This document shows positions 2,873-46,568 of a stretch of DNA of 64,000 nt, piece after piece. The stretch comes from Anadara kagoshimensis. Taxonomy: Eukaryota > Mollusca > Bivalvia > Arcoida > Arcidae. The notes beneath the pieces are model-generated. The model did not search any database and was not told the DNA's origin. It was given only the letters and a program-made list of their open reading frames with translations. The position numbers were made by a program, and so were the translations under genes. Every line of letters begins with the position of its first letter. The first letter of the stretch is position 1. The stretch lies in assembly GCA_021292105.1 (NCBI GenBank), contig CM037869.1, positions 45,486,832 to 45,550,831 of the forward strand, given 5' to 3'.

Positions 2873-4500
2873 GCTTGTATTATAGTGGTATTTGTTTGTC
2901 CACACGGACATATAGAAAAGTGTCCAACTTGAAAAATACATTTTTAGCGTTACCAGGTTACTGAATCTTTGTTCTACTGAAGACTTTATAGTCTGAAGTA
3001 TATAAAATAAATTATTAAATTTGTTGCCATTTGTCTTTAATATAGGAAGTCCATTATCTAGGTGCTTAAATTTTGAAAATCACATAAATAATAGCAATAA
3101 TATATAATTTTTTGCATTAATGGACTTCATAATAAACATTTTATAAACATCAGTACATACATGTATATTATTACATGTACTTTTGTCTAAAGTACTAAGT
3201 CAGCAAATACCTGTAATAACATATCTTACAGTGCCTATAAATCACAATTGCTTTTAAATGGTCAGGTACTTTGATTGCTTTATTGTTATCTAAATTTAGC
3301 AGTTGTTTTTTTATTGGTTTGCCATCCTCTCGAACATTAAAAAAATCAATCTAGAATTTATATCATACAAGATCAGCATCTGAAAAGGTTTTATGTGATC
3401 AATCAAAAATATATCAGAAACAAAAGGTGATTTGATTTATGTCACTCTGCTGATGACACACTTGTAGCAACTATAAAAGTCATCTGAGGGTTAATTTATC
3501 ATGTCAAATTTATTTTGTGTCAGTTTTGATGGGAGATACTGGGATACAAATATGTCACTTTGCATTCTGGTTTTCTGGATATACCAGAGCAGTGTGCTAC
3601 TGATATTTAATCAACAGGAGTTTAGAGTCAGGTGGCATAGGTGTTGGTGGTGAGCTTGGTACTGTGTTAAGTACTTTGATCTGTGGATTTGGTGACGTTT
3701 ATCTAAGAAATTTTAATAAAATAAACTGAAAATTGTCAACATCACTACTAGTATTTTATGGTATTTTCTAGATGAAACACTTTGGATTTATGTGTAAGCT
3801 TGTCAAGTGATTGGCATATTTGGAATGATCATTTAATATTACTCTTCTTTCTTTTTCATGGGAACTGTTGTTGTAGCTTCATTGAGATCAACACCAACAT
3901 GTATTTAAAGCAACCAATCAGAAAATAACCATTCCCATACTCAACTGGCTCATGTTTGGGTTACCCTTATTAAAACATGGAGGGAACATATCAACTGATA
4001 AATTTAGGGAATTTTCTGTCCAATTCAGTGTGAGGTTTGCAGCATAAATTTCCAATTATTAGTTTGTAATGTTTAAAATCAGAAATATATATTTAATAAA
4101 ATGGTATATGTTTCTGTTAATATTTGGCAGCTGTCACCTGCCAGACAAGAGAAACTTGCTAGTACAAAAGCTTTGATCTTCAAAGATCAATGCCATGATT
4201 CACAATTAAGTTCACTTTTCTCTTATTTAGAGAGCATGATAAAATAATTAAAATATACCAGAAAAGCAACATCATATTAAAAACATTGAGACCAATGATC
4301 ATGAAACTATTGAGACTTCTTATGGACCCAGTTTCCCAATATTTTTTTTAATCTGATTTTTTTAACTTAAATGTGGGGAATTTTAAATCTGTATGATTTT
4401 GTTAGTTTTCAAGATATTCATAAATTTAAGGTGTCAATTTGAAGAAAACTCTGAGCTTATTGCATTTATATTATGATTTGGTTTAACTTTAAATATTTTA
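2873..4500. other. No recognisable gene
   Basis: AT-rich DNA without open frames of note. The stretch around 4325-4450 resembles a decayed family 2 MITE end. Nothing else was identified. Confidence 0.5.
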
Positions 4501-4502
4501 TT

Positions 4503-4571
4503 AGTAGTGTCGTGTGCTAATTTTGAATTTTTATTAAAATAATGCATTCAAGATCAGCACATGACACTACT
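4503..4571. mobile_element. Miniature palindromic element (AGCACATGAC family)
   Basis: A roughly 57-bp hairpin with termini GTCGTGTGCT and AGCACATGAC and loop TTTTTATTAAAATAATGC. The flanking AGTAGT and ACTACT are also inverted, lengthening the palindrome. Relatives lie at 6836-6892, 12332-12388 and, as an inverted dimer, at 31759-31869. Confidence 0.8.
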
Positions 4572-6835: not shown

Positions 6836-6892
6836 GTCATGTGCTGTTTTTTAATTTTTATTAAAATAATGCATTTAAAATCAGCACATGAC
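6836..6892. mobile_element. Miniature palindromic element with 6-bp TSD
   Basis: A 57-bp palindrome with termini GTCATGTGCT and AGCACATGAC, flanked on both sides by AGTAAT (6830-6835 and 6893-6898). The direct flanks indicate a transposition product rather than a chance hairpin. Confidence 0.85.
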
Positions 6893-6968
6893 AGTAATGT
6901 CAATACTTTTTCTGTATAGTTGGGTTCAGATAGTCCTTTGGCTTTCTTGGTCCCTGTTCTTTCTAAAC

Positions 6969-20952: not shown

Positions 20953-21819
20953 CTGAAAAATAATTAACTGTGATCATTGTATGTACTGTTTGTAATGTGT
21001 TATTGAATTAGATATATTTTGACTTCAGAATAATGTAGAGAAACCTTATTGAATTCAATTTATCACAATGTTTGCATTACATATGTTTACATAATAGTAT
21101 TTCATTGAAATGCAGATATCTTTAATAACATTAAGGACATCATTATAGATTTGAATCAGAGACTAATGGGTTCAGATTGATGCATGTATATAATTTATTT
21201 ACTGACATTGGTAATTTTTATTTACAGAAATCTTTAATTATTCAGACATGTGTTCCTTGAAATGAAATTACAATGTCTTTACAATATATGCAATCACAAA
21301 TTGCATTGATTTGATAGGTTTTCACACATGTTTTCAATTGGAAATGTATTTCATTGAAATTTGAAACTGCATGCATAAAAATGATTAAATTTATTTCAAT
21401 GTGCCAATATCGACATGGCATGAATATCATCTATCACTATATTAACATTCAATATTTAATATATATAGAGAAATTTTATGTATATATACTGCGTCATCCA
21501 TGAATAAGTATACAAATTTATATTTGACATAATTTTTTGGAAAATTGATCTTAGTAAATTAAAACATTGAATATTTGGTACTAATTAAAAGTTACATATT
21601 AAGTTATTGATATAAAACTATGCACCAAAATTCTTTTTCTTCTAATTCCTGCTTTTTAAATTTTAAAAACATTTAAAAGTATACTTTTTGAGGATAATAC
21701 ATGTTCTATATAAGCTTAAAACATACCAAAATTATGTTTTCAACAATTTCAGTCATTATCGATATGCCAAGTTTTAAATATGTATAATAATACATGGATA
21801 GCAGTGTTTGTGTGTGTAC

Positions 21820-22210
21820 CTTCACAGTTGAATGATTCCAAACAAGTGGAAGATTTTGAACCTTGTGTAATGTTGTTGGAGTCTGTCCAGACTGCTACAC
21901 TCTGTGATTTTGCAATGGCATAAGACAGTCTGGACAGATCCGCTTCAGCAATTTGGCCATTTTCAATTTCTTTAATAATGTTGTCAACATTGGTGCTGGT
22001 GGGACATTCATTATTGTTCAAATTTGTTTCAGCATATTTCGCACACTGGCTACACAGGTATGTAGACTGTTTGCCTAAGTCACCATTTTGGACTAAACTA
22101 TCCACAACATTCTTTCGGAATTTTTTGGAGCTTATTTTAAAAATAGTACCATCTACTCCTTCCGAGTACTCTGCATGCCTCTTGCAGCTACAATTTTTTG
22201 GTGGCATTTT
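21820..22210 (-). CDS. N-terminal coding exon of the transposon gene
   Basis: Acceptor CAATAG is followed at once by AAAATGCCACC, a good start context. The exon encodes about 129 residues, beginning MPPKNCSCKRH. It has Cys/His-rich spots (CSCKRH; LCSQCAKYAE) and a FRKNVVDSL segment, and ends at donor GAAG|GTACAC. The CxC...H and CxxC pairs suggest a possible zinc-binding N-terminus; no classical THAP or BED spacing was recognised. The frame also stays open upstream through the preceding exon, so an alternative start at 22825 is possible. Confidence 0.65.
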
Positions 22211-22888: not shown

Positions 22889-23093
22889 GATTTACCATTT
22901 TTGACCAGTATTGTATAGGTATAGGTTCACGCGGTTTTGCAACTAAAGCTCATTAATTCATTCATTTATAAAACATACATTCATAATCTTATACAATATC
23001 ATAATTTTAAATATTTTTGGTGAACGACTATTCTACAACAATAACAATCGGGTTGACGCACCTCTCTGAAAATGACCCTACTTTTACAAATCA

Positions 23094-23203
23094 TTATTGT
23101 GACAGCCACTGTCCTATTAGTTTTTGTATAGTCTGTCTGGCTTGTGTTAGCTGGGGTGGGTCAGTATCTGCTGCTGGGTACATGTTAGCACAATGAGCTG
23201 TAC
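23094..23203 (-). CDS. PRSS16-like: S28 peptidase exon 10 (catalytic His, stop)
   Basis: Acceptor TATTTTAG|GTACAGC. Encodes [17 protein letters not shown] with catalytic His471, then a helix ending IGQWLSQ and TAA. The stop is only 246 bases from the end of the 5.8-kb transposon. Confidence 0.95.
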
Positions 23204-23327: not shown

Positions 23328-26300
23328 ACAGAGCGAGAGAGAGAGAGAGAAAGGGGGGTCCATGTCTTCAAATCATAATTTCCACAAAAAGCAAAGTGAA
23401 AGCCTTGAAATATGGCAAATAAATAGGTAAACTTCCACTACGGGAAACTTCTGGTGTCCGGAGGAGTGTCCACATCCGGTCTGGCCAGCTAGCTACACGT
23501 GTGTACCGGTAATCAAAATTGAGAGTAAAAGGAAACAGAACTACAGGATGTCAAACAAATCCAGGACACAGAGCCATCATATGATCGTTTTGCACTTGTG
23601 ATTTAGTAACAAAAGAACATATTAAAACGGAAATGGAATGTCATTTCAAAAGTGCCACCCCCCCAAAAAAAAACATAGCTAAATCAATGTTTTCAAAACC
23701 ATGATCATTATACGAATGGACAATGGTATATAGATAGAGGTTACTTCACACCAAAGATCCCATTGTTCCTTTAAAGTTTCATAATAATCTGTACAATAGT
23801 TTTTGAGAAAAGTGGCGAACAAAATGTTGGCAGAAGAAATGAGGTAAACACTACATATCCCCAACTTTGTTTGGTAGTGAGGATGTAATTATAATTATTA
23901 GTGATTTTTATTGTTTGAATACTTGGTTCACCACGCATTTCATGTTAACTGGAACAGTGACATATTAAATGCCGCTGGTGTCAGTGAGGTAGGAACAAAA
24001 TTACATTTGTACTTGGGTTGTGCCTATTCTCGACAGTTATGTCTATTCTCTAAGATTTCTGTTGAAGTTGAATCGACATTTATATAATTTCTGTTGAAGT
24101 TGAATAAAATTAATAAATTATTTTCCGTGACCTAAACCCAGCGTTTCTTGCTTCAGAATACTGTAATAGTTTGAAATAATGATCTCATGAAAACCATTGT
24201 GGCGGGAATACAAAAATTTAGGTACAACGCATAAATAGGTACATGTACACCACTTACATAATACATGATGTATTATAGTAATGAAAATATTTGAAAAACC
24301 ATATCGCCGAAAATAGGTATCCCACATATAAATAGAGTACATCGCTAACACAATATTATATTAACGAAAATATTTCTTCATAATCTCATGAAAACCATAT
24401 ACATGTAGGCGAAAATAGGAATGCCGGGAAATAAAAATTTTGTTGTTTCCTTTCAAAGTCATAACATGATAATATTTACACCTTAAGGTAACAACAACAT
24501 AATTCACATCAGATGTTCATTAGTTATAGTGTACAACTGGACACAATTACCTGTCATTTCAAAATAAACTGACCCATAACTTACCTTGACGTGTAACTTG
24601 ATATTTTAATTTATGTTCTAATTTGACAAGCCTTTAGAACACTTCATACGAGAGGCTATTTGTGTATGTCTATTGATGTCAAGTGTGACTGAGTGTTCTT
24701 GGGCAGCACTGCACATTGCAATTTTAATTAACATTGTATATGACAAACATTAGGGCTGGATTGAGTAATGGTGTTTAAGCCAAAGGCAACATTCTTTCAC
24801 TTGCATTGTGGTTCGTTTCAGTTCAGGGATGGTGAATCGGAGTGGGGGTATGGTTTTTACTACCCCAGTAAATTCAGAGATGGTAGAGGAATTTGAGTAC
24901 ATGAAAAAAAACCCACTGACCTTCGACAAGCGAACTTAAAAAATCATTATTTGCATTATCTGGAGTGGGAATCGAACATAGACAGTGAGAGGCGCTGCGA
25001 TTCGTAAGCACACGCTTTAAACAACTCAGTCACCAAGGCTCCTGACAAATATTAGACCACTGTACGTTTTCTGTAGTAAAATATAGTACTAACACCTCAT
25101 ACAAGAGGCTATTTGTGTATGTGTAATGATGTCAAGTGTGACTGAGTAGTCTTGGGTAGCATTGCACATTGCAATTGACGTATCGCCGACCACGCCCACA
25201 ATGTTCCGACACTGGCCGCCATCACGGTACCGAAGCAGCGTCACGGCAACAAATGACGTACTAGTGTCAGTGACGTTATTAAATGGCGCTATTCAGGCCG
25301 AGTTTTCATTCTTTTTTGCGTGTAAATCAAGCATCTCGCCATTTGACGGAACATTGTGGGCGTGGCCGGCGATACGTCAATTTAAATGTATGGCAATATT
25401 AGAGTTGGGTTGAGTAATCAGGTAATGGGGTCTTCAAGTTTCTTTCACTTGTATGAGGCGGTCAGTTTTAGGCTGGTGAAAGAAAGTTAAGTGTTGGTAG
25501 AAAAACCAAAAACCTCCAACAAGCAAGCTGACATACTTCGAGTTGGATACGAAAATAGGCAGTAATTATAAAAAAGCACTTCACACAGTATATATGTAGG
25601 TGATTATCGGTATTAAAAACATAATAAGTTAGTGTAAATTCTAAAATTAGATGTTCATATTTTAAGTGCAGTTAAAACATTATGTGTTAAGTAGTTATTG
25701 ATTGTACAATAATCAGGGGAAGTTAGGATGGCTTACCAGAGAACATAAAAACCAGTGGCAAATAGCCCTTTATGTTTATATCCTTTTTGTTTTTTCTTGT
25801 TTCAATAAAGTTTGTTGTATTGTGTTCTTGATTACCATGGCAACGAGCTATAGACACATGCACGTTTTTTTTAGCTGTTACTTTATATACATGTACATGT
25901 AGCTAGAAATTGGTATATTTCACTTTAAAATTTTTGGCTTGCAACCTTACCATCTATATATATTGCCGGAGAATCTGGTGACACGGTCTCGGTGAAGCTG
26001 AGAGCATGCCATGGATCAATAGACCCATTAGGGAACACGATTTTAGAACCCTTCATGGCAAATCCACCATAGTTTGTGTTACTTCTATTGACGGCTATCT
26101 GGATAAACTCTTCATTAAATTTCGTACCAAATATATCCATACATTGCTGAACTGAAAAACTGAAAAAATATAAAGTTGAATAATGAAATATTTGAATAAG
26201 AAAGAAATAACGCAAATACACAAGTGCCAGTGTGTGTACTTTTTAGCGACTTTCGCGGTAATACAAAGGCAGTAATTAAAATAAATTCCACTTAAAGCAA

Positions 26301-26813: not shown

Positions 26814-29800
26814 CTTTAGTGGAAAATGCTGTCCGAATGGTTGACTAGGAAGATCTGAAGACTGGAAATACGCAAATTCTGTACAAGTTTGATAGGTCCA
26901 CTGTCGCCCTGGAATTGGAGAAAGATTGTGTAGGATTATCAATTAGAAGCATTTATTAAGCATGTCCGTTCAACATTGGTCAAACCACTCAAGGCCCCTC
27001 CATCATAGTTTTAAAGTACAACAGAGAGAATAGAAGTATAAAAAACAAAGACCAGAGTATAATTCCAAAACAATAAATTGTTTTTGATAGAAAATGAATA
27101 AAATAGTTAAATGACGCCTAGAAGAGAATCAACATTAAGAATATTTTCATCCATAAGATAAATCTATATTATAAGAAGTTAATCCAAAAAAGTACTTAGA
27201 ATCCAAAGCATCATATGCTCCAATATCATAAAGCAATATGTCTTTTAAAAAAACAACAAGAACAACAAAAACCTCCCCCCCCCCCCAAAAAAAAAAAAAA
27301 AACCCCAGAAAACAAGCCGTTACTCTATCGTATAATTCCATTTAAAAGAAACAAAACACCAAAATTAAAACACCAAAAGCCCCAAATTTACAATAAACGC
27401 ATTTGATCTTTTTCAGCGGCTAAATGATCTGATTTTGAAGGTCATTGTTTGTTCAAAGAAGTATAAGCATAAAACAGAAATAAGCCTTATTTAGAGAAAA
27501 TTACACCAAATGTTGTGTTTGAGCAAAACCAAATCAGAAACCATATGAATCAGACACAAACATACCATTTCATTTTCAAATCACAGCCCCCCCCCCCCCC
27601 CCCCCCAAAAAAAAAAAACAAAGTCAAAACTCCACCAGGAAAGTAAACAACTTCTGTTGAGCTAGCTACACAATAGTCCCTTTGGAAAGATGGAATGGCC
27701 ATTCCTCATCAGTCATTTTCGTAGCAATGCGTTATATTGAGACCTGCTGAATGTACCCGGGGTTATAATTATTAGACATCCTTCATTAGAGGTCGCTCAT
27801 TTTTGTAGGGTTTCGTTTTACTTTGCTTTGGGATTGTGAATGTACCCGAGGTTATAATTGTACCTCAATGCAACATCGACCATTTCCGTAGTGGTTTGTT
27901 TTATCGAGAACTGCCGAATGTACCCGAGGTTATATAATTCTACACCCTTCATTGGAAGTCGCTCATTTCCCTAGGGTTTCGTTTTATCGAGAACTGCCGA
28001 ATGTACCCGAGGTTTTATAATTGTACCTCAATGCAACATTGACCATTTCCGTAAGGGGTTTGTTTTATCGAGAACTACCGAATGTACCCGAGGTTATATA
28101 TTTGTACCTCCTTCTGCAGCACTGCTGTTCCAGTCGGTTTTCTTTAAGTCGTTTATCATGCTATCATACTTAAAATCTGTGCATTTCTCAGAATATGTAT
28201 CCAGAAGAGTATCAATAACATCACCATATCTGACAAGCGGGTCTCCAAGCCGTTCATCGATCATGGTATTGCACAGAATATCGATGGTAACGTTTAGTTT
28301 TGCACCCTGAAGTTAAAAGTAACACCCATATGAATTTTATAGCTATTGACTTTACCTCCCTCCGCAGCACTGCTGTTCCAATCAGTTTTCTTCATGTCAT
28401 TTATCATGCTGTCATATTTAAAATCAGTACATTTCTGCGAGTATGTCTTTAGGAGCAGAGAATTTACACTAGCAAATCTGGTCAATGGACTCCCTACATT
28501 GTCATTGTTCATGATGCCACATAGTACCTCAATGGTAATATTAGTGCCAAGTCCACCCTGAAGTAAAAAAAAGCAACACTAGAAGTGTTAGATTTCAATA
28601 GTTACTTGGGTTAGTGCTTCAAAAACAAACATGCCAATCAATACCCAAATCACAATCCCAAAGAAAAGTATTTTTTTTCAAAACTGGCAAGTTAAGCAAA
28701 AGCATAGTAATAACTTGGAAAAATGGCGAATTAAATCAAACTTCCACCAGGGAAGTGAGGCCAGGCCCGTTTCACAATCATTCCTTAACAAAGATTTTTC
28801 TTAACTTAAACTTATCAAATTTTGGTTAATCTATTGATGGAACTAATGAAGAATATTTCTGTCAAAACTAAATCATGTAAATGCAAATGTTTAAATCTAT
28901 AGGTGATCTTAAAAATGACACATTAAATTCCCGAATATCTTGAAAATTAACAAAATTATAAAGATTTGAAATTTTGCAAGATTTAAGTTAAGGAAAATCT
29001 TAGCTAAGAAATGATTGTGAAACCGGGGCCAGGTGCTACAAAAAGGTAAGAATCCCCCATTAAGCTCACTTCACCAGACTCTGTGTAATCACAATCGTGA
29101 CATAGAACTATGGGGCAAAAAATATATCCAGATAAATTTTGCACATAGAGACATCTTACTTATAAACGTGTAAATAAGATATTAAATATCTTTTTTTAAA
29201 TCCAGTCAAGATCACACGTTCATACGCCCATGTTTATATTTCAACAAGCAAATTCAGTGATTGGCACATATGTTTAAAGGGCAATAACTCCCAGGAAAAT
29301 GAGCAAACCATCTCCGATCAATGTTGATGCTTTGCAACAAGTTTTGTGAAATAGTGCTTCATAGTTATGAAGAATTTCAAATGGACAGACGGAATTTAAT
29401 ATTGCTCTTTTTCTTCGAAAGACTGAGATAAAAAGTGTTTCAGAAGGGTATGTGTGCCTAAAATTTAACCAAAATGTGAAAATCGGACATCTACCAGGGG
29501 ATATGGATGACAATCTGCCTCATAATTCATATTACCAAGCTAAAAGTTCCATTCGTAGTTCAGGTGCACCAAACTGCAAATCTGTTAAACTAATTTTAGT
29601 TACCTCAAACTTCCTATTGTCTTTATTATATTGGACCACGCCCTCAAAATTACCAGCTAGTGCAGAATAAAAGTTAGCTATGTCTAACGGATTGGTAATG
29701 TCTAGATCATCACATAATCTGAAAGAAAAATCGAAGTGGTTATTGCCCCGTACGTGTCAATAACAAATGTGTTATTACCACATATTTTTTATACCCGTAT

Positions 29801-32800
29801 TTTATAGTACCGTTATACATGTACATGGGCTTTATAACTTTATGATTGTCTATAAATACATCAATTTAGTGATAATTAAAGTATATTTAATAGAAACTTG
29901 TCATGTTTGGGTCAAATAATAGATTATTTTAATAAAAACGTAAATACGGTTTTAGATCTGCCATTTTGTTTTCGTCATACGGTCGGGTCGTTTTTTGTAG
30001 TTCATCACGATCAAAGATCTATCATCAATCATTTAGACAGCAACTTTTTGGAAAAATATCAATAAAATTTTGTTTTAATTCAACATTGAACTATTTTATC
30101 CTATTCAATCGATGTATGAAGTTACATGCGTACGTTTATACGGATATAAAAAATACATGGTACATGTAATAACATCCGCCAAGAAAAATATTAGTATATA
30201 AAACATATCAAAGCATGTAGTATTTAAACAAAACCAGATTGGGGGGGGGGGGGTAATGGAGATTTACTCCCCATTGCGGAAACCACTACGGTAGCCCTGT
30301 CGGTAGAGTGCTAGCTTCGTATGTAGGAGGCCGGGTTCTGCCAGCGCCAAGACAAATTTTCTGAAATTAGGGTCTGCCATAAGTGGGATTCGAACCTTGA
30401 TGGCCAGAGGGGCTTGTGATCAGTATGTGTGCGCTTAAGACCATCCTGCAACCGAGATTCCCACAATACAAGACACAAAGAAACAAAACCTTTTTTCAAT
30501 ATAAGGTATGTCCAAAGAACAGCATAGCTATTTATAGCATGCCTGTACATAATCAATCACTTTAACACGTGTCAAATGCTGAACTTGCAGTGTTAAATGC
30601 AATTTTATTGAAAACTGTATCACAGGACATGTACAAAGGCGTTGGCGTTAGGTTGTCCTGAAATAGAAATCTCAGTGCTTTTCGTAAGGCAAAGTCAAAT
30701 TTTATCAAACACCGCTGATCGCAAGTCTAGACCTGTTTGAAAAGAATGGTCAACTGGAAAACCTTTATGAGTGACATGATATAGTGGTATCTAGTAGACA
30801 TTATATACATCTATTGCTGTAACATTATTTAAGAAATAAGGTAATTTTCCAATGCCTTTATAAAGCCTTTTGTGCACAACTTTGAGACAACCCATTATAC
30901 TTTGCAAGTTCATAAAGACATTGGAAAATTACCTTATTTCTTATATTTACAATATTTATAAAATCAATTTTATTGCCGTCTCACGTTTTCCATGTTAATT
31001 TGAAAACAATTATGAAATGCGCTGTTGGTGCACTTATCATAAATTTGATCGTCTCCTGCCAGTCAACAAGAGGATTTGACATCTGCCGTCATCACGTCAG
31101 CACGTGAAGCAAAGCCTCTAATATGAAGTTGCAAAGTATAGTCGATGACAAATACTTTATTGAAGCAAAGATATTGCACTTGTAAATATTTACACTGTTG
31201 GGTTGTTAGGCTGGCGGATGATGTGTGGCACCCGTTTCATTTATTTATTATTCATCGGTTTTGCACTGAAGGAAACCAAAATACATTGTACAAGAAGAAC
31301 ATTGTGGTATTTGGGAATGAGAGCTATAGTACATAAGTTAAACACTAAGCTAATGGATAAGTGCCGCATTGGCAGCTCATATCGGAACTTTATTAGGTTT
31401 ATCTCAACAGCATTTCATTAGCTGTTTTCTATCTCCAGACAGCTCTAACGTCACCAGCAATCCATATCTCAGCCACTCGGCAGATGAAGTTCGACTCCTT
31501 TTTGTTAGCTCAGTGTTAAACTTTCGACAAATTTGTATTGTTCTTTGATTGGCAAAATGTATTATATACAGGTATCTTACACAAAATTCTCCTTTAATTG
31601 TTTTCTGCCATCATCAGTCTGTATTAGTCTTTCTATCATTTGTGTGGCTACTTTAATATTTTGGTTACAGCCTGGTCCGGTTGTGGCTAAAGAGTCTCTT
31701 ACCACACCAAGATATTCTGAAAAAAAAATTATAAGAATGAAATAGCATTAATAGCATTGTCTTGTGTTACTTTTGAATTTTTATGAAATAATATAATTCA
31801 AAAGTAGCATATGGCATGTGCTACTTTTGAATTATATTATTTCATAAAAATTCAAAAGTAGCACATGACAGCATTAAGGAAAATAATACGTGTGTGTGTG
31901 TGTGTGTGTGTGAAACCGACACCTTGTATATAAAATCCAGTGACTCACCAGTAAAATTCAGTTTTGCAAATATTGGAGCACTTGTCGCCACGGCACCAGT
32001 CGCTAAATGTGGATACTTCAACCTAAACCATGCTGACAGGGCACCTATTAGAGAAAATACAGGTATATACTAGTATATATCATGATTAAGCTTCAGGCAA
32101 CCGGAATGTAAAAATTAGGATGGCTAGGGAGCCTATAAAGTAGTGTGGTGTTAAAGAGACTCGCATATAACTGGGTTCTTCTTTCTGGGGTAAGGGTTTT
32201 AAATGTTAAATACATAATTGACAAAACAATAAAACAAGTTATAACAGAAATGAGATACCATTTCAAAAGTGCCCGCCTCCTAAAAACGCTTCCAATCTAA
32301 AAAAAAATCCATGTTTTCCCAACCATGTGTTTGATTAAATAAGAATTACAAGTGCCACATCTATTCCAGCAATACTGTTGCTGTGTGGCTCAATAAGATA
32401 AGTAGTTATCAGAGAATGTGTCGGACAAATGTTTGCAGAAGAAACGGATTAAACAATACTGTTTATGCTCCAGCACTTCGTTTAGGGACACTATAGTATG
32501 TTGAATCAATCTGCACAAGTTTTGTCTATGAAACTAAATTTAATTAATATGAATAATATATATAATATTTAAAATTATCGAAAATTGTTTCTATTCAGAT
32601 GTAGGCGAAAGGTTTTTTAATTCTAAAGAACCTGACTCCATCCACATGTACATCCGAACCTTGGTTGAATAGATACGGGGCTTCTATGGTCGAGTGGTCT
32701 AGAGCGCGCGCTTATTAATCACGGCGCCCACATCGAATCCTACTCGGGGCAGATTATGGTACGAGGAACTTTGTCAGATTGCTTTGGTGAAGGTTTCCGG

Positions 32801-33132: not shown

Positions 33133-35586
33133 ACCAATCAATCTATCAACATACCTGAGTATGAGCCTCCAAATGTGATATATTTGTTGTCATATAACTT
33201 ATATTTTGATTTAGTATACTGGATAAAATTTGCTAGATCGGCTAATGCTTGCTCACTGCTTAAATATTGTAGGTTTTCTGTACTCATATCACTGTAAAAG
33301 AAATTATATGTAACAAGTTATAACAGAAACGAGATGCGACTTCAAAAGTGTTCCCTTAAACGGACCCCAACTGAGAAATCCGAAAGAATGACCCGAGTAG
33401 GCGAGCGGCCGAAGATTAGCCGAAAAACTGTCGAGAGATGGACAACAGCTGTCTAAAACGTGTCGAGTTATAGAAAACTATAGGCCGAGATATAACTGTC
33501 GATTAGCCAATTAAGCACTAATTAGTGTTAAACTTTCGACAGATATATACTGTATGAATAGCCAATGACGCATCAACTGCAATCAAGAATTTTCCGGTGA
33601 AGTTTCGTAAATATCATTCTGAGAAAAGTGGCGGGCTAAATATGGAGTAAACAATATTTGCCCATGACTTCCTTGGGGGCATAATTTATGGTTCTTTGTG
33701 GTAAATTATACTTTATTAACCATAAAAACCCAACATTCATTATGCCAACAAAAAGATCGATTCTCTTTTCGATAACACAAGAAAAACATGACATAATGAA
33801 GTTCTTACGAATGTGAGAAATTGATTTATAACGCAAAATTATGAGTGGAAAATTTTATGCTCCGACAATGTTTTGAAACTACTTGGAATGATATGATGGC
33901 CCTAGGACTGTAAATTTTAAAATTTTGTATCCACAAAGATAGTTTTTTTTTCTGTATCAAGATTAAAATTAGGATACCTTCAAGATTTTCTGCTGAACAT
34001 ATATACAAAGGAGTATCTGATAAGTTGTTATGTTGATAAATGAATATTTGTATCCCGTAATAGTCAAAAGACAACCAGCACCCAATTGTTTTAAGCTTGA
34101 TTAGTTTCATCAATGCTCAGCGAAAAATTTAAAACATGAAAATATTATTATCGATTTTCAACATTTCAACATATTTTCACAATACATATATATCTGAAAT
34201 CATGCAATGTTCAAATTTTGACTAACGAATTGATTAAACTAATCAGGCTTCGAACAACTGACCCCAAACATTTAGATTTACTGATACCCTGTCCCATTGA
34301 ATTTTGATGGCCAGAGCAACAAAACGCGATAAAATTGATACAATTCGCTTACACTCGCGGTCAGTGGGCTACCGCAGTGGTGCACTAGCCCAGAACTTCC
34401 AACCGCCGCGATATATCGGTAAGTAAAAGGGTCTCTGCACCGTAAAATCCAATTTAGCCCTCTTTACGCTAAATGCTAATCCATCCATTGACTATTAATC
34501 ACAAAGGGGGAAAAGGATTTCAATGTCCAGTCTTTTTACCTGGTTGGGTGACTTTTTCCATAAAATCTATGTTCAAGTTGGAAACACATTGCGTTGTAAG
34601 TTTTGGCAAAATCAATCCATGCTCCATTGGACATCCATGCAGGATTAGCCGGGCCTTCACCTCCAATCATCACAAACACTGGACCTCCAGTCTTATAGTA
34701 CGAATCTTCCATAAAATATCGCTTTTAAATAAATATAAAACTGGTTTTTTTTTAATCGCAAAGTTTCAAGGCCCTCTTACGGCCCAGGTCTCTCTCTCAC
34801 ACTTTTGTGAATAGGACCAGGGCCCTTGCAGTTGTAAAAATAATGGCCAAAATTGTGAAAAATGTGATAGGAAACTCTAAATATACTGGCTTTACAGCTG
34901 AAATTTTCAAAATTGTGAAAATGGGCAAAATGATTGTGAAAAAAAACATAAGATTTTGAATTGTGAAGGGGCAGAATATCGGCCCCAAAAGTGACCCAAC
35001 GAGAGCCATGCGACCAGAGTTTATTAGTACGTCCTTAATTCAAACATTGAAATAGAAGCATACCAGTTCATGTTCAAATCACAATCAAAAATGCAAATTA
35101 AAAAAAAAACAACCGAGATAATTAAAAAATGCAAAATAAGCTAAACACACGACCTTTAAAAAGGGTCTAAGTGAGGCTGGATACTCCGAAAGGATTAACA
35201 CCTCCCATCCGCCACAAGTGCGATTAAATTAGAGAATGACAGATACATGGAACTATATGGGGCCTCAAATATATCAAGAATAATTATCAATACAAAGACA
35301 TCATACTTATAATACTCCCCCCTTCCTCTTACTCTCACGCAACATGTAATCACCATATGCACGATATATGTCAGTATTTATTAGACGCTGTAAATCGCTG
35401 TAGAGGGGGTCGTCGGTCCATCTCTATTGACCAGGAAGGGGGGGGGGAAAGAGAGAGAGAGAGAGAGAGAGATTTTACTTAATAAAGTGATATAAAAATA
35501 TGTGGTTCGCTTAATCAAGTACCTGTTTCCAAATCGCTGTAGAGGGGGTCGTCGGTCCATCTCTATTGACCAGGAAGGGGGGGGGG

Positions 35587-35650
<64 letters not shown>

Positions 35651-35756
35651 ACTTAATAAAGTGATATAAAAATATGTGGTTCGCTTAATCAAGTACCTGT
35701 TTCCAAATCGCTGTAGAGGGGGTCGTCGGTCCATCTCTATTGACAAGGAAGGGGGG

Positions 35757-35827
<71 letters not shown>

Positions 35828-36108
35828 TTTTACTTAATAAAGTGATATAAAAATATGTGGTTCGCTTAATCAAGTACCTGTTTCCAAATCGCTGTGTCTG
35901 CATTGTTGAAATTGTCTAATTTTTGTGTGAACCAGAGATCTGGAAATATTTTTGCCCGTAGATTCTTCGGTACCCGTGGGGCACCAAGCATTCCCCCTCT
36001 CGGTCTTCCTCGAAGAAAACGTGGGATCCATGCATTTGTTAAGCTTAAAGAAATCACAAGTAAGCCGAACACTAACATAGTGTTGTTTACACCCATGGGC
36101 GCAGCCAT
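23094..36108 (-). CDS. PRSS16-like: S28-family serine peptidase (PRSS16/thymus-specific serine protease-like), 10 coding exons
   Basis: Coding exons, minus strand: 35878-36108, 34540-34721, 33155-33291, 31949-32044, 31581-31716, 29604-29718, 28356-28557 (7a) or 28108-28306 (7b), 26815-26908, 25951-26159, 23094-23203. All introns are GT-AG and all phases agree; the total is 1512 nt, 503 residues (502 with 7b), the usual S28 length. Residues 1-26 form a signal peptide. The motif [10 protein letters not shown] (59-68) is typical of the PRSS16 branch. The nucleophile is Ser181 in GGSYSG. Asp446 lies in NGSIDPW and His471 in [10 protein letters not shown], 25 residues apart as in prolylcarboxypeptidase. 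The family cleaves peptides in lysosomes, endosomes or outside the cell, often at proline. An in-frame TGA four codons upstream (TGA TTT GTC AAA ATG) fixes the start. No canonical AATAAA was found before the adjacent transposon; TATAAA occurs near 22963. Confidence 0.95.
23279..23351. repeat. Compound CA/GA microsatellite
   Basis: About 23 CA units, a short interruption and then about ten GA units. Confidence 0.97.
23560..23890. repeat. Dispersed repeat shared by three peptidase introns
   Basis: Blocks such as TTTCAAAAGTGCC, GAGAAAAGTGGCG and GTTGGCAGAAGAAATGAG are shared with 32225-32485 and 33312-33680. No coding capacity or clear termini. Confidence 0.7.
24638..24800. repeat. Duplicated segment, copy without MITE
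   Basis: Matches 25090-25430 from GAGGCTATTTGTGTATGT through GTCAAGTGTGACTGAGT to GGATTGAGTAATGG. It shows the site before insertion of the MITE at 25175-25380. Confidence 0.8.
24775..25050 (-). mobile_element. tRNA-derived SINE, family C
   Basis: Read on the minus strand: a head containing GGTGACTGAGTTGTTTAAAG, a B box GTTCGATTCCCACTCC, then a body with GGTTTTTTTTCATG. Confidence 0.7.
25175..25380. mobile_element. MITE family 4 (TTGACGTATCGCCG termini)
   Basis: 206 bp bounded by TTGACGTATCGCCGACCA and GGCCGGCGATACGTCAA; the inverted match extends about 34 bp through CACAATGTTCCG. A second copy in opposite orientation lies at 58279-58472. Comparison with the empty paralogous site at 24730-24745 supports recent insertion, with AATT at both edges as possible target duplication. 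Confidence 0.9.
25951..26159 (-). CDS. PRSS16-like: S28 peptidase exon 9 (catalytic Asp)
   Basis: Begins after TATTTTTTCAG and encodes [21 protein letters not shown] and [12 protein letters not shown] with catalytic Asp446. Donor ATG|GTAAGG. A second CAG eight bases into the exon would shift the frame and is unlikely to be used. Confidence 0.95.
26160..26814 (-). other. S28 intron 8
   Basis: 655 bp, with a CT/GT/GA compound microsatellite at about 26426-26484 and a GA run (26769-26810) ending right beside the exon 8 donor. Confidence 0.8.
26815..26908 (-). CDS. PRSS16-like: S28 peptidase exon 8
   Basis: Acceptor AATTCCAG|GGCGAC, donor CTAAA|GTAAAT. Encodes [15 protein letters not shown], a highly conserved S28 segment (usual form QW.YQTC.E.G.YQ), with conserved Cys375. 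Confidence 0.94.
26909..28107 (-). other. S28 intron 7: homopolymer runs and tandem repeats
   Basis: Contains two poly-C/poly-A blocks (about 27275-27302 and 27587-27619) and an array of about five 80-bp units next to exon 7b (27720-28107). A fragment of the AAACTTCCACCAGGGAAGTG repeat family also occurs around 27500-27660. Confidence 0.75.
27720..28107. repeat. About 80-bp tandem array abutting the exon 7b donor
   Basis: The motif CGAATGTACCCGAGGTT recurs at about 27750, 27839, 27917, 28000 and 28081, spaced 78-89 bases. Two alternating sub-types are visible (CTCAATGCAACATCGACC versus CCTTCATTGGAAGTCGC). In gene orientation each unit repeats GAGGTACAAT-like sequence resembling the true exon 7b donor. 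Confidence 0.85.
28108..28306 (-). CDS. PRSS16-like: S28 peptidase alternative exon 7b
   Basis: 199 nt between acceptor TTAACTTCAG|GGTGC and donor GGAG|GTACAA, entry phase 0 and exit phase 1, exactly as exon 7a. Encodes 66 residues from [12 protein letters not shown] to [10 protein letters not shown]. The last 26 residues differ from 7a by a single Met/Leu exchange although about nine codons carry silent changes; the first 40 residues are strongly diverged. It is therefore a functional paralogous exon. Using both exons would shift the frame, and the 49-nt gap to 7a is too short for normal splicing, so the two should be mutually exclusive. The exon lies between the two catalytic blocks, in or beside the helical SKS domain that caps the active site in S28 enzymes. 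Confidence 0.88.
28356..28557 (-). CDS. PRSS16-like: S28 peptidase alternative exon 7a
   Basis: 202 nt between acceptor TTTACTTCAG|GGTGG and donor GGAG|GTAAAG. Encodes 67 residues from [13 protein letters not shown] to [10 protein letters not shown]. It keeps an N-glycosylation sequon (NIT; NVT in 7b) and the LC cysteine also present in 7b. The conserved family segments around KCTDFKYD and [12 protein letters not shown] run into exon 8. Confidence 0.93.
28761..29033. mobile_element. MITE family 2
   Basis: Near-perfect termini: CCAGGCCCGTTTCACAATC at the left and TGATTGTGAAACCGGGGCC then AGG at the right. Adenine/thymine-rich interior without coding capacity. Confidence 0.88.
29277..29450. 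repeat. GGGCAATAACTCC dispersed repeat
   Basis: Shares GGGCAATAACTCCCAGG, GAGCAAACCATCT and GAAATAGTGCTTCAT with 53310-53510. Non-coding. Confidence 0.75.
29604..29718 (-). CDS. PRSS16-like: S28 peptidase exon 6
   Basis: Acceptor TTTCTTTCAG|ATTATG, donor GAG|GTAACT. Encodes [20 protein letters not shown] and [10 protein letters not shown], both recognisable PRSS16-branch segments. Confidence 0.95.
30282..30475. mobile_element. SINE family A head joined to an inverted family C fragment
   Basis: The plus-strand head CTACGGTAGCCCTGTCGG is broken after GGAGGCCGGGTTC. At once a minus-strand piece follows with B box GGTTCGAATCCCAC and a tRNA-like head. A nested or chimeric SINE. Confidence 0.6.
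30831..30942. mobile_element. 112-bp hairpin element
   Basis: Perfect 24-bp arms: AAGAAATAAGGTAATTTTCC plus AATG at the left and the exact complement at the right, around a 64-bp loop. Confidence 0.85.
31327..31540. mobile_element. MITE family 1
   Basis: Left end TACATAAGTTAAACACTAAGC is degraded; the right end TTGTTAGCTCAGTGTTAAAC, then TTTCGACAAATTTGTA, is clear. Ends shortly before exon 5. Confidence 0.8.
31581..31716 (-). CDS. PRSS16-like: S28 peptidase exon 5
   Basis: Acceptor TTTTTTTTCAG|AATATC, donor TTTTGT|GTAAGA. Encodes [20 protein letters not shown] and a helical tail. The family equivalent is EY..VV..SL...G..C. Confidence 0.95.
31759..31869. mobile_element. Inverted dimer of the miniature palindromic element, 6-bp TSD
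   Basis: Two units of the AGCACATGAC family lie head to head, making a perfect outer and inner palindrome. AGCATT flanks both ends (31753-31758 and 31870-31875). It sits in the 232-bp intron 4, so nearly half of that intron is foldback DNA. Confidence 0.88.
31892..31911. repeat. GT microsatellite
   Basis: About ten GT units in intron 4. Confidence 0.95.
31949..32044 (-). CDS. PRSS16-like: S28 peptidase exon 4
   Basis: Acceptor CTCTAATAG|GTGCC, donor ACTG|GTGAGT. Encodes [19 protein letters not shown] followed by TSAPI, the helix and strand directly after the nucleophile elbow. Confidence 0.95.
32045..33154 (-). other. S28 intron 3
   Basis: 1110 bp with a dispersed repeat (32225-32485), a family C SINE (32676-32870) and an AATC microsatellite (33098-33131) next to exon 3. 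Confidence 0.8.
32676..32870 (+). mobile_element. tRNA-derived SINE, family C
   Basis: Head GGGGCTTCTATGGTCGAGTG, B box ATCGAATCCTACTCGG, body with GGTTTCCGGTTTCTTCCAC and GATATATGTGAAAGAATC. Confidence 0.82.
33155..33291 (-). CDS. PRSS16-like: S28 peptidase exon 3 (nucleophile Ser)
   Basis: Acceptor TCTTTTACAG|TGATATG, donor TCAG|GTATGT. Encodes [20 protein letters not shown] and ends in FGGSYS, so the nucleophile Ser181 is three codons before an intron that splits the final Gly codon of the motif. Confidence 0.96.
33292..34539 (-). other. S28 intron 2
   Basis: 1248 bp. The dispersed repeat (33312-33680) is interrupted by a family 1 MITE (33382-33553). The remainder to 34539 is unassigned. 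Confidence 0.7.
33382..33553. mobile_element. MITE family 1, degraded left end
   Basis: Right terminus TTAGTGTTAAACTTTCGACA, then GATATATACTGT, is clear; the interior keeps TGTCGAGAGATGGACA and similar family blocks. Confidence 0.65.
34540..34721 (-). CDS. PRSS16-like: S28 peptidase exon 2
   Basis: Acceptor ATTTAAAAG|CGATAT, donor ACCAG|GTAAAA. Encodes [30 protein letters not shown] and [12 protein letters not shown], the classical S28 N-terminal blocks (GGP.F..IGGEG; EHR.YG.S.P). Confidence 0.96.
34722..35877 (-). other. S28 intron 1 with triplicated exon-edge units
   Basis: 1156 bp. From 35381 to the exon border it consists of three GA-rich tandem units that carry copies of the exon 1 end; the rest (34722-35380) is unassigned. 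Confidence 0.8.
35392..35885. repeat. Tandem units duplicating the exon 1 splice donor
   Basis: AAATCGCTGT followed by GGGGGTCGTCGGTCC, a G run, a GA microsatellite and TTTTACTTAATAAAGTG recurs at 35392, 35531 and 35705. The true exon edge is at 35886. In gene orientation the copies at 35531 and 35705 reproduce GCGATTTGGAAACAG|GTACTT, the last exon 1 bases plus donor. Spacing is 139, 174 and 181 bases, varying mainly in GA length. Confidence 0.92.
35878..36108 (-). CDS. PRSS16-like: S28 peptidase exon 1 (start, signal peptide)
   Basis: 77 codons. The start [10 protein letters not shown] leads into hydrophobic [16 protein letters not shown] (signal peptide, cleavage probable after Ala26). A basic stretch and the family motif [10 protein letters not shown] follow. 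Donor AAACAG|GTACTT. Confidence 0.95.
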
Positions 36109-41472: not shown

Positions 41473-42621
41473 ATGGCAGACGATAAAATTCAACATGAAA
41501 CAAAATGGTTGAATTTGTTAAAATCTTACAAAATATCATCAGTTTTTTGTACAGGGAATCACTGTGATGTATCTTTGGAATCGGCGAAATATATAAACAC
41601 CAGCGAATTCGTACAAACCGATGTCATTCCGGAATACGGAACAATTCTGAGTGGAATGTGTGACGCTGATCCCGATAACCTGCACGAGAAAATTAAACAA
41701 GTGACTTTGATACCGTTGTCGGTGTTGATTATAAGCTGTAATTTTGCGGTAATCATTTTTATGGCTGTTAACAAACATTTTCACAGCCCAACATATTTCT
41801 TGATTGGTTGTTTGGGTATGGCGGATTCGTTTGTTGGTTTCGTTTCCATCGGGACGCTCATTACGCATGCTAAAGAATCAACGTTAGATACATGCTTGAT
41901 ACGGATTGGGTTTTCTATAGCATCGTGTGTAGCATCGTTGATGTTTTTGGTGTGTATTGCGATAGATCGATACATTGCAATAACTCAGACGCTACTTTAT
42001 AAACAAATCGTCACGGAAACCAAAGTAGGAGCTGTTACAATATTGGTTTGGACATTTTCTTTATGTTTTGGATTTTTGCCTCTTATGGGTTGGAAAAGAG
42101 ATGAATACCGCCATTACTGTTCTTTTTTGTATGTTCTTCCGGATAATTACGTCATTTTGTTATTTGTTGTTGGCGCATTTATTCCATTTTTCGTCATGCT
42201 TGTAATTTATATCAAGTTGTATAAAAACACTAAAATACACATAAAAAGAATAGAGGCCATAGAGAATTTACATTTGGACACTCGGAATAATAATGGACCA
42301 CTCGGAATTTCGTTACGGACCTGGAAATCCCTAAAAACGTTGACCGTGATCATTGGATGTGTATTCCTGACGTGGATTCCGTTAATTATTACCTCAATTG
42401 TCCAGATAACGATAGGACACAAAGCTTGCTTCTTAAAAGATATCATTGGAACGCATTTGTTGATTCTGGGATATTCCAACTCTTTCCTAAATCCTCTAAT
42501 ATATGCCTTCAGAAGTAAAGATTTCCGGGAAAAGGTTAAAAAGAAATTTTGTCGGAAACATGTTTGCCATCCGGTGGAGTTTATTTCGGTCTATCCGATT
42601 TCTAGGGGAAGTAATAAGTAA
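41473..42621 (+). CDS. Intronless class A (rhodopsin-family) G-protein-coupled receptor
   Basis: 382 residues; TAA directly before the ATG (TTTAAATG) fixes the start. Seven hydrophobic helices lie at about 77-99, 107-130, 141-163, 186-206, 225-247, 288-310 and 325-345. Landmark residues are Asn90 (TM1), Asp118 in LGMAD (TM2), Asp165-Arg-Tyr (TM3), Trp193 (TM4), TWIP 300-303 (TM6) and NPLIY 340-344 (TM7). Helix 8 is basic, with Cys360 as a possible palmitoylation site. Asn42 in NTS can be glycosylated. FLPLMGWKR after TM4 and the DRYIAI run resemble the adenosine/GPR119/lysolipid receptor group, but orthology is not clear and the ligand is unknown. It would signal at the plasma membrane. A possible polyadenylation signal AATAAA occurs at 43402, or a nearer non-canonical one is used. 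Confidence 0.95.
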   Translation: MADDKIQHETKWLNLLKSYKISSVFCTGNHCDVSLESAKYINTSEFVQTDVIPEYGTILSGMCDADPDNLHEKIKQVTLIPLSVLIISCNFAVIIFMAVNKHFHSPTYFLIGCLGMADSFVGFVSIGTLITHAKESTLDTCLIRIGFSIASCVASLMFLVCIAIDRYIAITQTLLYKQIVTETKVGAVTILVWTFSLCFGFLPLMGWKRDEYRHYCSFLYVLPDNYVILLFVVGAFIPFFVMLVIYIKLYKNTKIHIKRIEAIENLHLDTRNNNGPLGISLRTWKSLKTLTVIIGCVFLTWIPLIITSIVQITIGHKACFLKDIIGTHLLILGYSNSFLNPLIYAFRSKDFREKVKKKFCRKHVCHPVEFISVYPISRGSNK

Positions 42622-46342: not shown

Positions 46343-46568
46343 CCTAGTATCTGAAAGTGTTTAGGAAACAATGTGGAAAACTTATAATTGACTGATGGAC
46401 GGACGGAGGGACCGACCAACAGCATTATACTTCCTACGTCTTAAGTTTCGTAGAGTATAATAATAAATACATGTACCCTACTAAAATCTGCCAAAATACA
46501 GAAAACCCAGAAATTTAAATTTAAAAAACTGAATTTTACATGTACTTTACAAACCGAAGTATAATGAA

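What the first reader, a model, noticed from the sequence alone, without database searches (positions are those of the whole stretch)
28108..28557. Tandem, apparently mutually exclusive exons 7a/7b in an S28 serine peptidase
Seen: two adjacent exons, both 1 mod 3 in length (202 and 199 nt), same entry and exit phases, intact AG and GT borders, separated by only 49 nt. Their last 26 codons differ by about nine silent changes and a single Met/Leu change, while the first 40 residues have diverged strongly. Established: tandem homologous exons that cannot be joined in frame and are too close to splice together are normally used one at a time. Inference: the gene makes two enzymes with different surfaces in or beside the SKS cap region and so possibly different peptide preference. 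I know of no described example for PRSS16-like enzymes, but could not search.
Basis: partly seen in the sequence, partly recalled or inferred. Interest (0 to 1): 0.92.

Follow-up and report, generated by a model that had tools for sequence, protein, structure and literature searches.

The report
Either-or exon pair in peptidase gene
A gene for a prolyl-peptidase-like enzyme in what is probably a mollusc carries two alternative versions of one exon, 49 bases apart, which most likely lets the animal make two enzymes that share a catalytic core but differ in the outer part of the lid over the active site.

Summary
A minus-strand, ten-exon gene for a peptidase S28 enzyme (K12H4.7/F56F10.1 branch) has two homologous exons 7: 7a (28356-28557, 202 nt) and 7b (28108-28306, 199 nt), equal phases, 49-nt gap. 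Only mRNAs with exactly one copy stay open; both or neither give a premature stop. The pair is old: silent sites have diverged strongly while protein changes are held back in both halves. A 100-aa ORF from a separate public contig (P0187) reads through a near-identical 7a and a gap of equal length into the first bases of 7b. Both copies keep the two cysteines that align with DPP7 cap disulphides. The last 26 codons, nearly identical, align with the substrate-side segment of the cap. The first 40 residues align with outer cap helices, where the swap changes net charge by 5. Mutually exclusive splicing is therefore likely, but no transcript was available. Altered peptide preference is possible, not favoured. 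My ten literature searches listed no S28 example (capped lists). This is a known kind of splicing in a new gene family.

The parts
35878..36108 (-). coding exon 1 (N-terminus)
   Evidence: open frame and donor CAG|gtactt
34540..34721 (-). coding exon 2
   Evidence: splice borders, S28 homology of the gene
33155..33291 (-). coding exon 3 (Ser181 in GGSYSG, catalytic by alignment)
31949..32044 (-). coding exon 4
31581..31716 (-). coding exon 5 (Cys232, aligned with DPP7 Cys216)
29604..29718 (-). coding exon 6 (Cys263, aligned with DPP7 Cys246), ends in phase 0
28356..28557 (-). exon 7a, 202 nt, the copy more like the homologs
28307..28355 (-). 49-nt gap between 7a and 7b (gt...ag); same length in P0187
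28108..28306 (-). exon 7b, 199 nt, more diverged copy, one codon shorter
26815..26908 (-). coding exon 8, enters in phase 1
25951..26159 (-). coding exon 9 (Asp446, catalytic by alignment)
23093..23203 (-). coding exon 10 (His471, catalytic by alignment; stop codon)
27731..28114 (-). minisatellite that begins at the 7b donor and repeats donor-like GAG|GTACAA

Best explanation
Exons 7a and 7b are a mutually exclusive pair in an S28 peptidase gene. Shown: each joins exons 6 and 8 in frame, both together or neither give a stop, the two copies have diverged under purifying selection, and a second record has 7a, the gap and the start of 7b. Inferred: the 49-nt gap prevents 7a-to-7b splicing because its only well-placed branch-point candidates lie 25 and 36 nt from the 7a donor; any double or zero inclusion is removed by frame shift and mRNA decay. 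Inferred: the two enzymes keep one catalytic triad, one set of cap disulphides and one substrate-side segment, and differ in two outer cap helices and the loop between them, where 7b is 5 charges more negative. The most likely effect is on partner binding, location, pH behaviour or stability of the cap; a change of peptide preference is a lesser possibility.
For: Open frames only with exactly one copy. Codon maximum likelihood: omega 0.15 in the first 40 codons and 0.03 in the last 27, each below 1 (p = 0.003 and 9e-6); dS above about 1 in the first part and about 1 (lower bound 0.3-0.4) in the second. P0187 agrees with 7a at 64 of 67 residues, reads through a gap of the same length with one residue different and ends exactly where the window reads a stop inside 7b. 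7b keeps 13 of 18 family-conserved residues of the first part against 7.6 expected if all changes were random and on 7b (P = 0.005). Both copies keep the two exon-7 cysteines and both N-glycosylation sequons. Only 0.56% (90 of 16,180) of non-exclusive exons on the fly X chromosome share these features with a neighbour (PMC3228551, passages). The smallest other intron of this gene is 232 nt; the smallest of 263 complete mussel introns was 100 nt, in a size-selected set (PMC4101229 Table 4, passages).
Against: No transcript of either junction could be examined. 7b has changed several residues that are nearly invariant in the family (exon positions 32 Asn to Ile, 29 Ala to Gly, 34 Leu to Thr) and has the lowest donor score in the gene by a rough matrix written from memory (-0.24, next exon 5 at -0.14). 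If only half of the changes are put on the 7b branch, retention of conserved residues is not significant (P = 0.28). Of 120 homologs 110 score better with 7a, 9 are ties within 5 points and 1 scores better with 7b; of 86 fragments none scores more than about 6 bits better with 7b. So I saw no clear 7b-type exon in another protein. P0187 does not cover the body of 7b.
Confidence: 0.78

Rival explanations
1. 7b is a decaying copy: only 7a is used, and 7b is a cryptic exon whose inclusion gives rare or no mRNA.
For: 7b is the more diverged copy, has changed near-invariant residues, has a weak donor directly abutting a minisatellite, and no clear 7b-type exon was seen among 120 homologs and 86 fragments.
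Against: No stop and no frameshift, although random placement of all the differences on one copy leaves it stop-free in only about 20% of simulations; omega of the last 27 codons 0.03 and of the first 40 below 1; the start of 7b reads the same in a second record.
Confidence: 0.13
2. 7a and 7b are two cassette exons used as a switch: joint inclusion or joint skipping deliberately makes an unproductive mRNA that lowers enzyme amount.
For: Both joint inclusion and joint skipping give early stops.
Against: This would not require 7b to stay a good S28 exon, yet its last 27 codons are held almost unchanged; the 49-nt gap is unusually short for this gene.
Confidence: 0.06
3. The near-identity of the last 26 codons is the product of an older partial gene conversion between the copies and not of special constraint. 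(A question of history, compatible with the best explanation.)
For: At 19 of 21 family-variable positions in the last part the two copies are alike; of 2313 homolog pairs with first-part identity 0.35-0.50, none reaches 0.81 in the last part; a model with one omega and two dS values is not rejected (p = 0.39).
Against: Nine silent changes have accumulated since, dS about 1; equal dS with two omegas is not rejected either (p = 0.13).
Confidence: 0.45

Closest known systems
Mutually exclusive homologous exons with a close branch point, e.g. OGDH exons 4a/4b (alpha-tropomyosin and alpha-actinin are cited there)
   Same: Adjacent homologous exons and, for OGDH, branch points 25-41 nt from the upstream donor (PMC7969005, passages); here candidates at 25 and 36 nt.
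   Different: Different protein family; the gap of 49 nt is shorter than the 118-131 nt of OGDH in birds and mammals; no transcript or branch-point evidence here.
Peptidase S28: human DPP7 and PRCP
   Different: Belongs with K12H4.7/F56F10.1-named proteins. The stretch from the second exon-7 cysteine to the next Trp is 28 residues here, 25 in DPP7 (Cys322-Trp347) and about 16 in PRCP (my count; the PRCP cysteine there is not aligned by either). No alternative exon is mentioned in the parts of the two structure papers that I saw.
Two S28 proteins of the scorpion Centruroides sculpturatus, both listed with a contig of 320,410 bases (P0038, P0095)
   Same: Nearly identical over most of the chain, strongly different inside the cap segment, with the difference ending at SWN-DSAAEGG.
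   Different: They also differ at the N-terminus and slightly elsewhere, so more likely tandem gene copies than alternative exons; not tested.

Membership tests
Peptidase S28 (PF05577) | match to the Pfam model | tested here: met
   214 bits in one reading frame and 88 in another against a cut-off of 25
Peptidase S28 (PF05577) | Ser-Asp-His triad | tested here: met
   Ser181, Asp446, His471, all in exons outside 7, aligned with PRCP and DPP7; activity not tested
Peptidase S28 (PF05577) | cap disulphides (DPP7 Cys216-Cys293 and Cys246-Cys322) | tested here: met
   Cys232, 312, 263, 342; the homolog profile aligns all four columns with those DPP7 cysteines (numbers); with PRCP only three of four align; bonds not seen
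Mutually exclusive exon pair | adjacent homologous exons, similar length, same phases, intact splice borders | tested here: met
Mutually exclusive exon pair | joint inclusion and joint skipping break the frame | tested here: met
Mutually exclusive exon pair | both copies kept by selection | tested here: met
   pairwise omega below 1 in both parts; not resolved per copy: one of two simulations for 7b alone is not significant
Mutually exclusive exon pair | pair shared with another lineage | tested here: inconclusive
   one other record, P0187, which covers 7a, the gap and only the first ten bases of 7b and whose species is unknown
Mutually exclusive exon pair | gap too short for joint splicing | tested here: inconclusive
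   branch-point candidates 25 and 36 nt from the donor; mollusc lower limit not established
Mutually exclusive exon pair | each mRNA holds exactly one of the two exons | not testable with these tools
   no RNA reads available

The most novel reading that the evidence does not exclude
The outer cap of K12H4.7-type S28 peptidases is an exchangeable module that evolution swaps repeatedly while the catalytic core and the substrate-side segment are held constant: by either-or exons here, and by cap-focused divergence of otherwise near-identical proteins in a scorpion. The exon choice would then retarget or retune one secreted or lysosomal peptidase between tissues or states.
Probability: 0.2. Interest if true: 0.65.

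Novelty: new member of a known kind. Interest (0 to 1): 0.42.

Why it matters
If transcripts confirm it, one animal would offer a natural experiment on the SKS cap: two enzymes that are identical except for outer cap helices. That would make it directly testable what this unusual cap domain does beyond covering the active site, in a branch of the S28 family whose substrates are, as far as I recall, poorly known. It also adds a peptidase to the list of genes diversified by tandem exon duplication.

Tried and rejected
Recent gene conversion or a haplotype or assembly duplication: rejected, since silent sites and the first part are strongly diverged. Older partial conversion is not rejected. The simple dS figures (pS 0.65 and 0.79) ignore the transition bias and were replaced by the likelihood fit.

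A third copy of exon 7, or copies of other exons, in the window: none by tblastn and blastn, apart from the last 18 nt of exon 1 (twice) and a 21-nt match of exon 4 at 46519. RNA families and tRNAs in the window: none reported.

A 7b-type exon in other species: no clear one among the best 120 of 2342 full-length hits, nor in a search on the 7b region (4 hits), nor among 86 fragments, which did give P0187. The database is clustered at 90% identity, so isoforms that differ only in exon 7 would be merged and hidden. Six oversized hits (566-874 aa) were dropped before the alignment counts (P0011, P0053, P0067, P0073, P0090, P0098), leaving 114 of 120; one search counts all 120.

Placing the species by a tree of 63 rows: unresolved. 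A PRCP-based assignment of the fourth cap cysteine: not borne out by the alignments, so DPP7 is used instead.

Literature: ten searches. Those that join S28 names with splicing, exclusive exons, bivalves or invertebrates are 20 of 6,112 listed; 15 of 2,059; 0 papers; 12 of 1,022; 0 papers; on exclusive exons in serine proteases found one paper, on prostate cancer. No listing showed an S28 case; the lists are capped and subscription papers are mostly missing, so absence from print is not proven.

Full report
The gene. The minus strand from 36108 to 23093 encodes a peptidase of family S28 in ten coding exons. I placed the borders by hand from homology and splice signals, and the spliced frame runs open to the stop. 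The protein is 503 residues with exon 7a or 502 with 7b. The closest relatives found are animal proteins, many named putative serine protease K12H4.7 or F56F10.1. The best is 66% identical, and the five best named hits are molluscs.

The pair. Exon 7a is 28356-28557 (202 nt) and exon 7b is 28108-28306 (199 nt), 49 nt apart. Both enter in phase 0 and leave in phase 1. 7b matches the 7a peptide with 93 bits, against at most 25.8 bits in 100 shuffled windows. The transcript with 7a alone and the one with 7b alone are open to the normal stop. Joining both stops 16 residues after the junction codon; skipping both stops near the end of exon 8. This is the classical layout of mutually exclusive exons.

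Age and selection. In the last 26 codons there are nine silent changes and one Met/Leu. In the first 40 positions, 17 of 39 aligned residues agree and one codon is missing from 7b. A codon model fitted by likelihood gives omega 0.15 for the first 40 codons and 0.03 for the last 27, each significantly below 1 (p = 0.003 and 9e-6). Silent divergence is above about 1 in the first part, and about 1 with a lower bound between 0.3 and 0.4 in the second. One common rate and ratio for both parts is rejected (p = 2e-7). The data do not decide between stronger constraint on the last part (equal dS, p = 0.13, omegas 0.30 and 0.02) and a later partial conversion there (equal omega, p = 0.39).

The halves compared with the family. 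In 114 homologs (6441 pairs) the last 27 positions are on average less conserved than the first 40 (0.48 against 0.54). In 7a/7b it is 0.93 against 0.44. None of the 2313 pairs with a first-part identity of 0.35-0.50 reaches 0.81 in the last part. So the sameness of the last part is particular to this gene and not general protein constraint.

A second record. A search with the piece from exon 6 into exon 9 that contains 7b found P0187, a 100-residue ORF from a 987-nt Logan contig. It agrees with exon 7a at 64 of 67 residues, reads through the whole gap with one residue different and no length change, and runs on for the first ten bases of 7b (RVQN), ending exactly where the window reads a stop. 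The arrangement and its gap length therefore exist in another sample, from a close relative or the same species. Only the protein reading is available. It does not reach the body of 7b and shows no splicing.

Splicing mechanism (inferred). The gap's best-placed branch-point candidate lies 25 nt from the 7a donor and 24 nt from the acceptor. A poorer one lies at 36 nt, and two others are only 6-7 nt from the acceptor. Vertebrate work quotes a limit of about 50 nt between donor and branch point (PMC7969005, passages). Other introns of this gene are 232 nt or longer. Steric exclusion is thus likely, but not shown for this animal.

Where the difference lies. In DPP7 the insertion 329-341, with the substrate anchors Asp334 and Thr336, lies in the stretch aligned with the conserved last part. 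The channel residues shown from Table 2 of PMC3430648 (passages) include none in the stretch aligned with the variable first part; Leu281 aligns just before exon 7. The swap changes net charge in exon residues 1-41 from 0 to -5, and in the second helix from +2 to -2. Of 114 homologs, 4 are at or below -5 and 15 at or above 0; in the helix 1 is at or below -2 and 14 at or above +2. I therefore expect the two isoforms to differ mainly on the outer cap. A survey of such exons finds their variable residues enriched at the surface and near functional sites (PMC7954323, passages), so an effect on substrate choice is not excluded.

Against. 7b has lost several near-invariant residues and has a weak donor by a matrix written from memory. 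Of 120 homologs, 110 score better with 7a, 9 tie and 1 scores better with 7b, though the one-codon deletion costs 7b some of that margin. One of two simulations of neutral change is not significant. The probability that 7b is a dead copy is put at 0.13.

Novelty. Mutually exclusive exons are well known; WebScipio predicts them by length, phase, splice sites and homology (PMC3228551, passages), all met here. My literature searches listed none in an S28 peptidase, within capped lists. It is a new member of a known kind, in a place that makes the function of the SKS cap testable.

Noticed in passing
27731-28114: A minisatellite (units of about 83 or 164 nt) starts at the 7b donor and repeats donor-like sites GAG|GTACAA near 28030 and 27867; read on from 7b, the sequence after the normal donor meets a stop within five codons, so those sites would give truncated proteins.
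   Followed up: partly
35450-35895: The last 18 nt of exon 1 with its donor are tandemly repeated in intron 1 at 174- and 181-nt spacing with CT microsatellites, giving three possible exon 1 donors.
   Followed up: no
P0038 and P0095 (Centruroides sculpturatus, both listed with a 320,410-base contig): Two S28 proteins nearly identical except at the N-terminus and in a cap block from about exon 5 to late exon 7.
   Followed up: partly
28766-29026: 58-nt inverted repeat arms, 83% complementary, in the intron before 7a; a similar-looking element lies near 2625-2870 (by eye), perhaps a MITE.
   Followed up: no
31752-31867, 4500-4565, 6836-6895: Short AT-rich palindromic elements of similar sequence scattered in the window, seen by eye.
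   Followed up: no
41473-42621 (+): Open 382-residue single-exon frame for a rhodopsin-type GPCR (7tm_1, 138 bits), upstream of and divergent from the S28 gene.
   Followed up: no
21749-22210 (-): Cysteine-containing 153-residue open frame without a Pfam match at E 0.001.
   Followed up: no
P0193 (Mytilus galloprovincialis) and P0200 (Mytilus edulis): Annotated mussel proteins that lack the exon 7 region, joining the equivalent of exon 6 to later exons; possibly a gene-model fault around exon 7.
   Followed up: no
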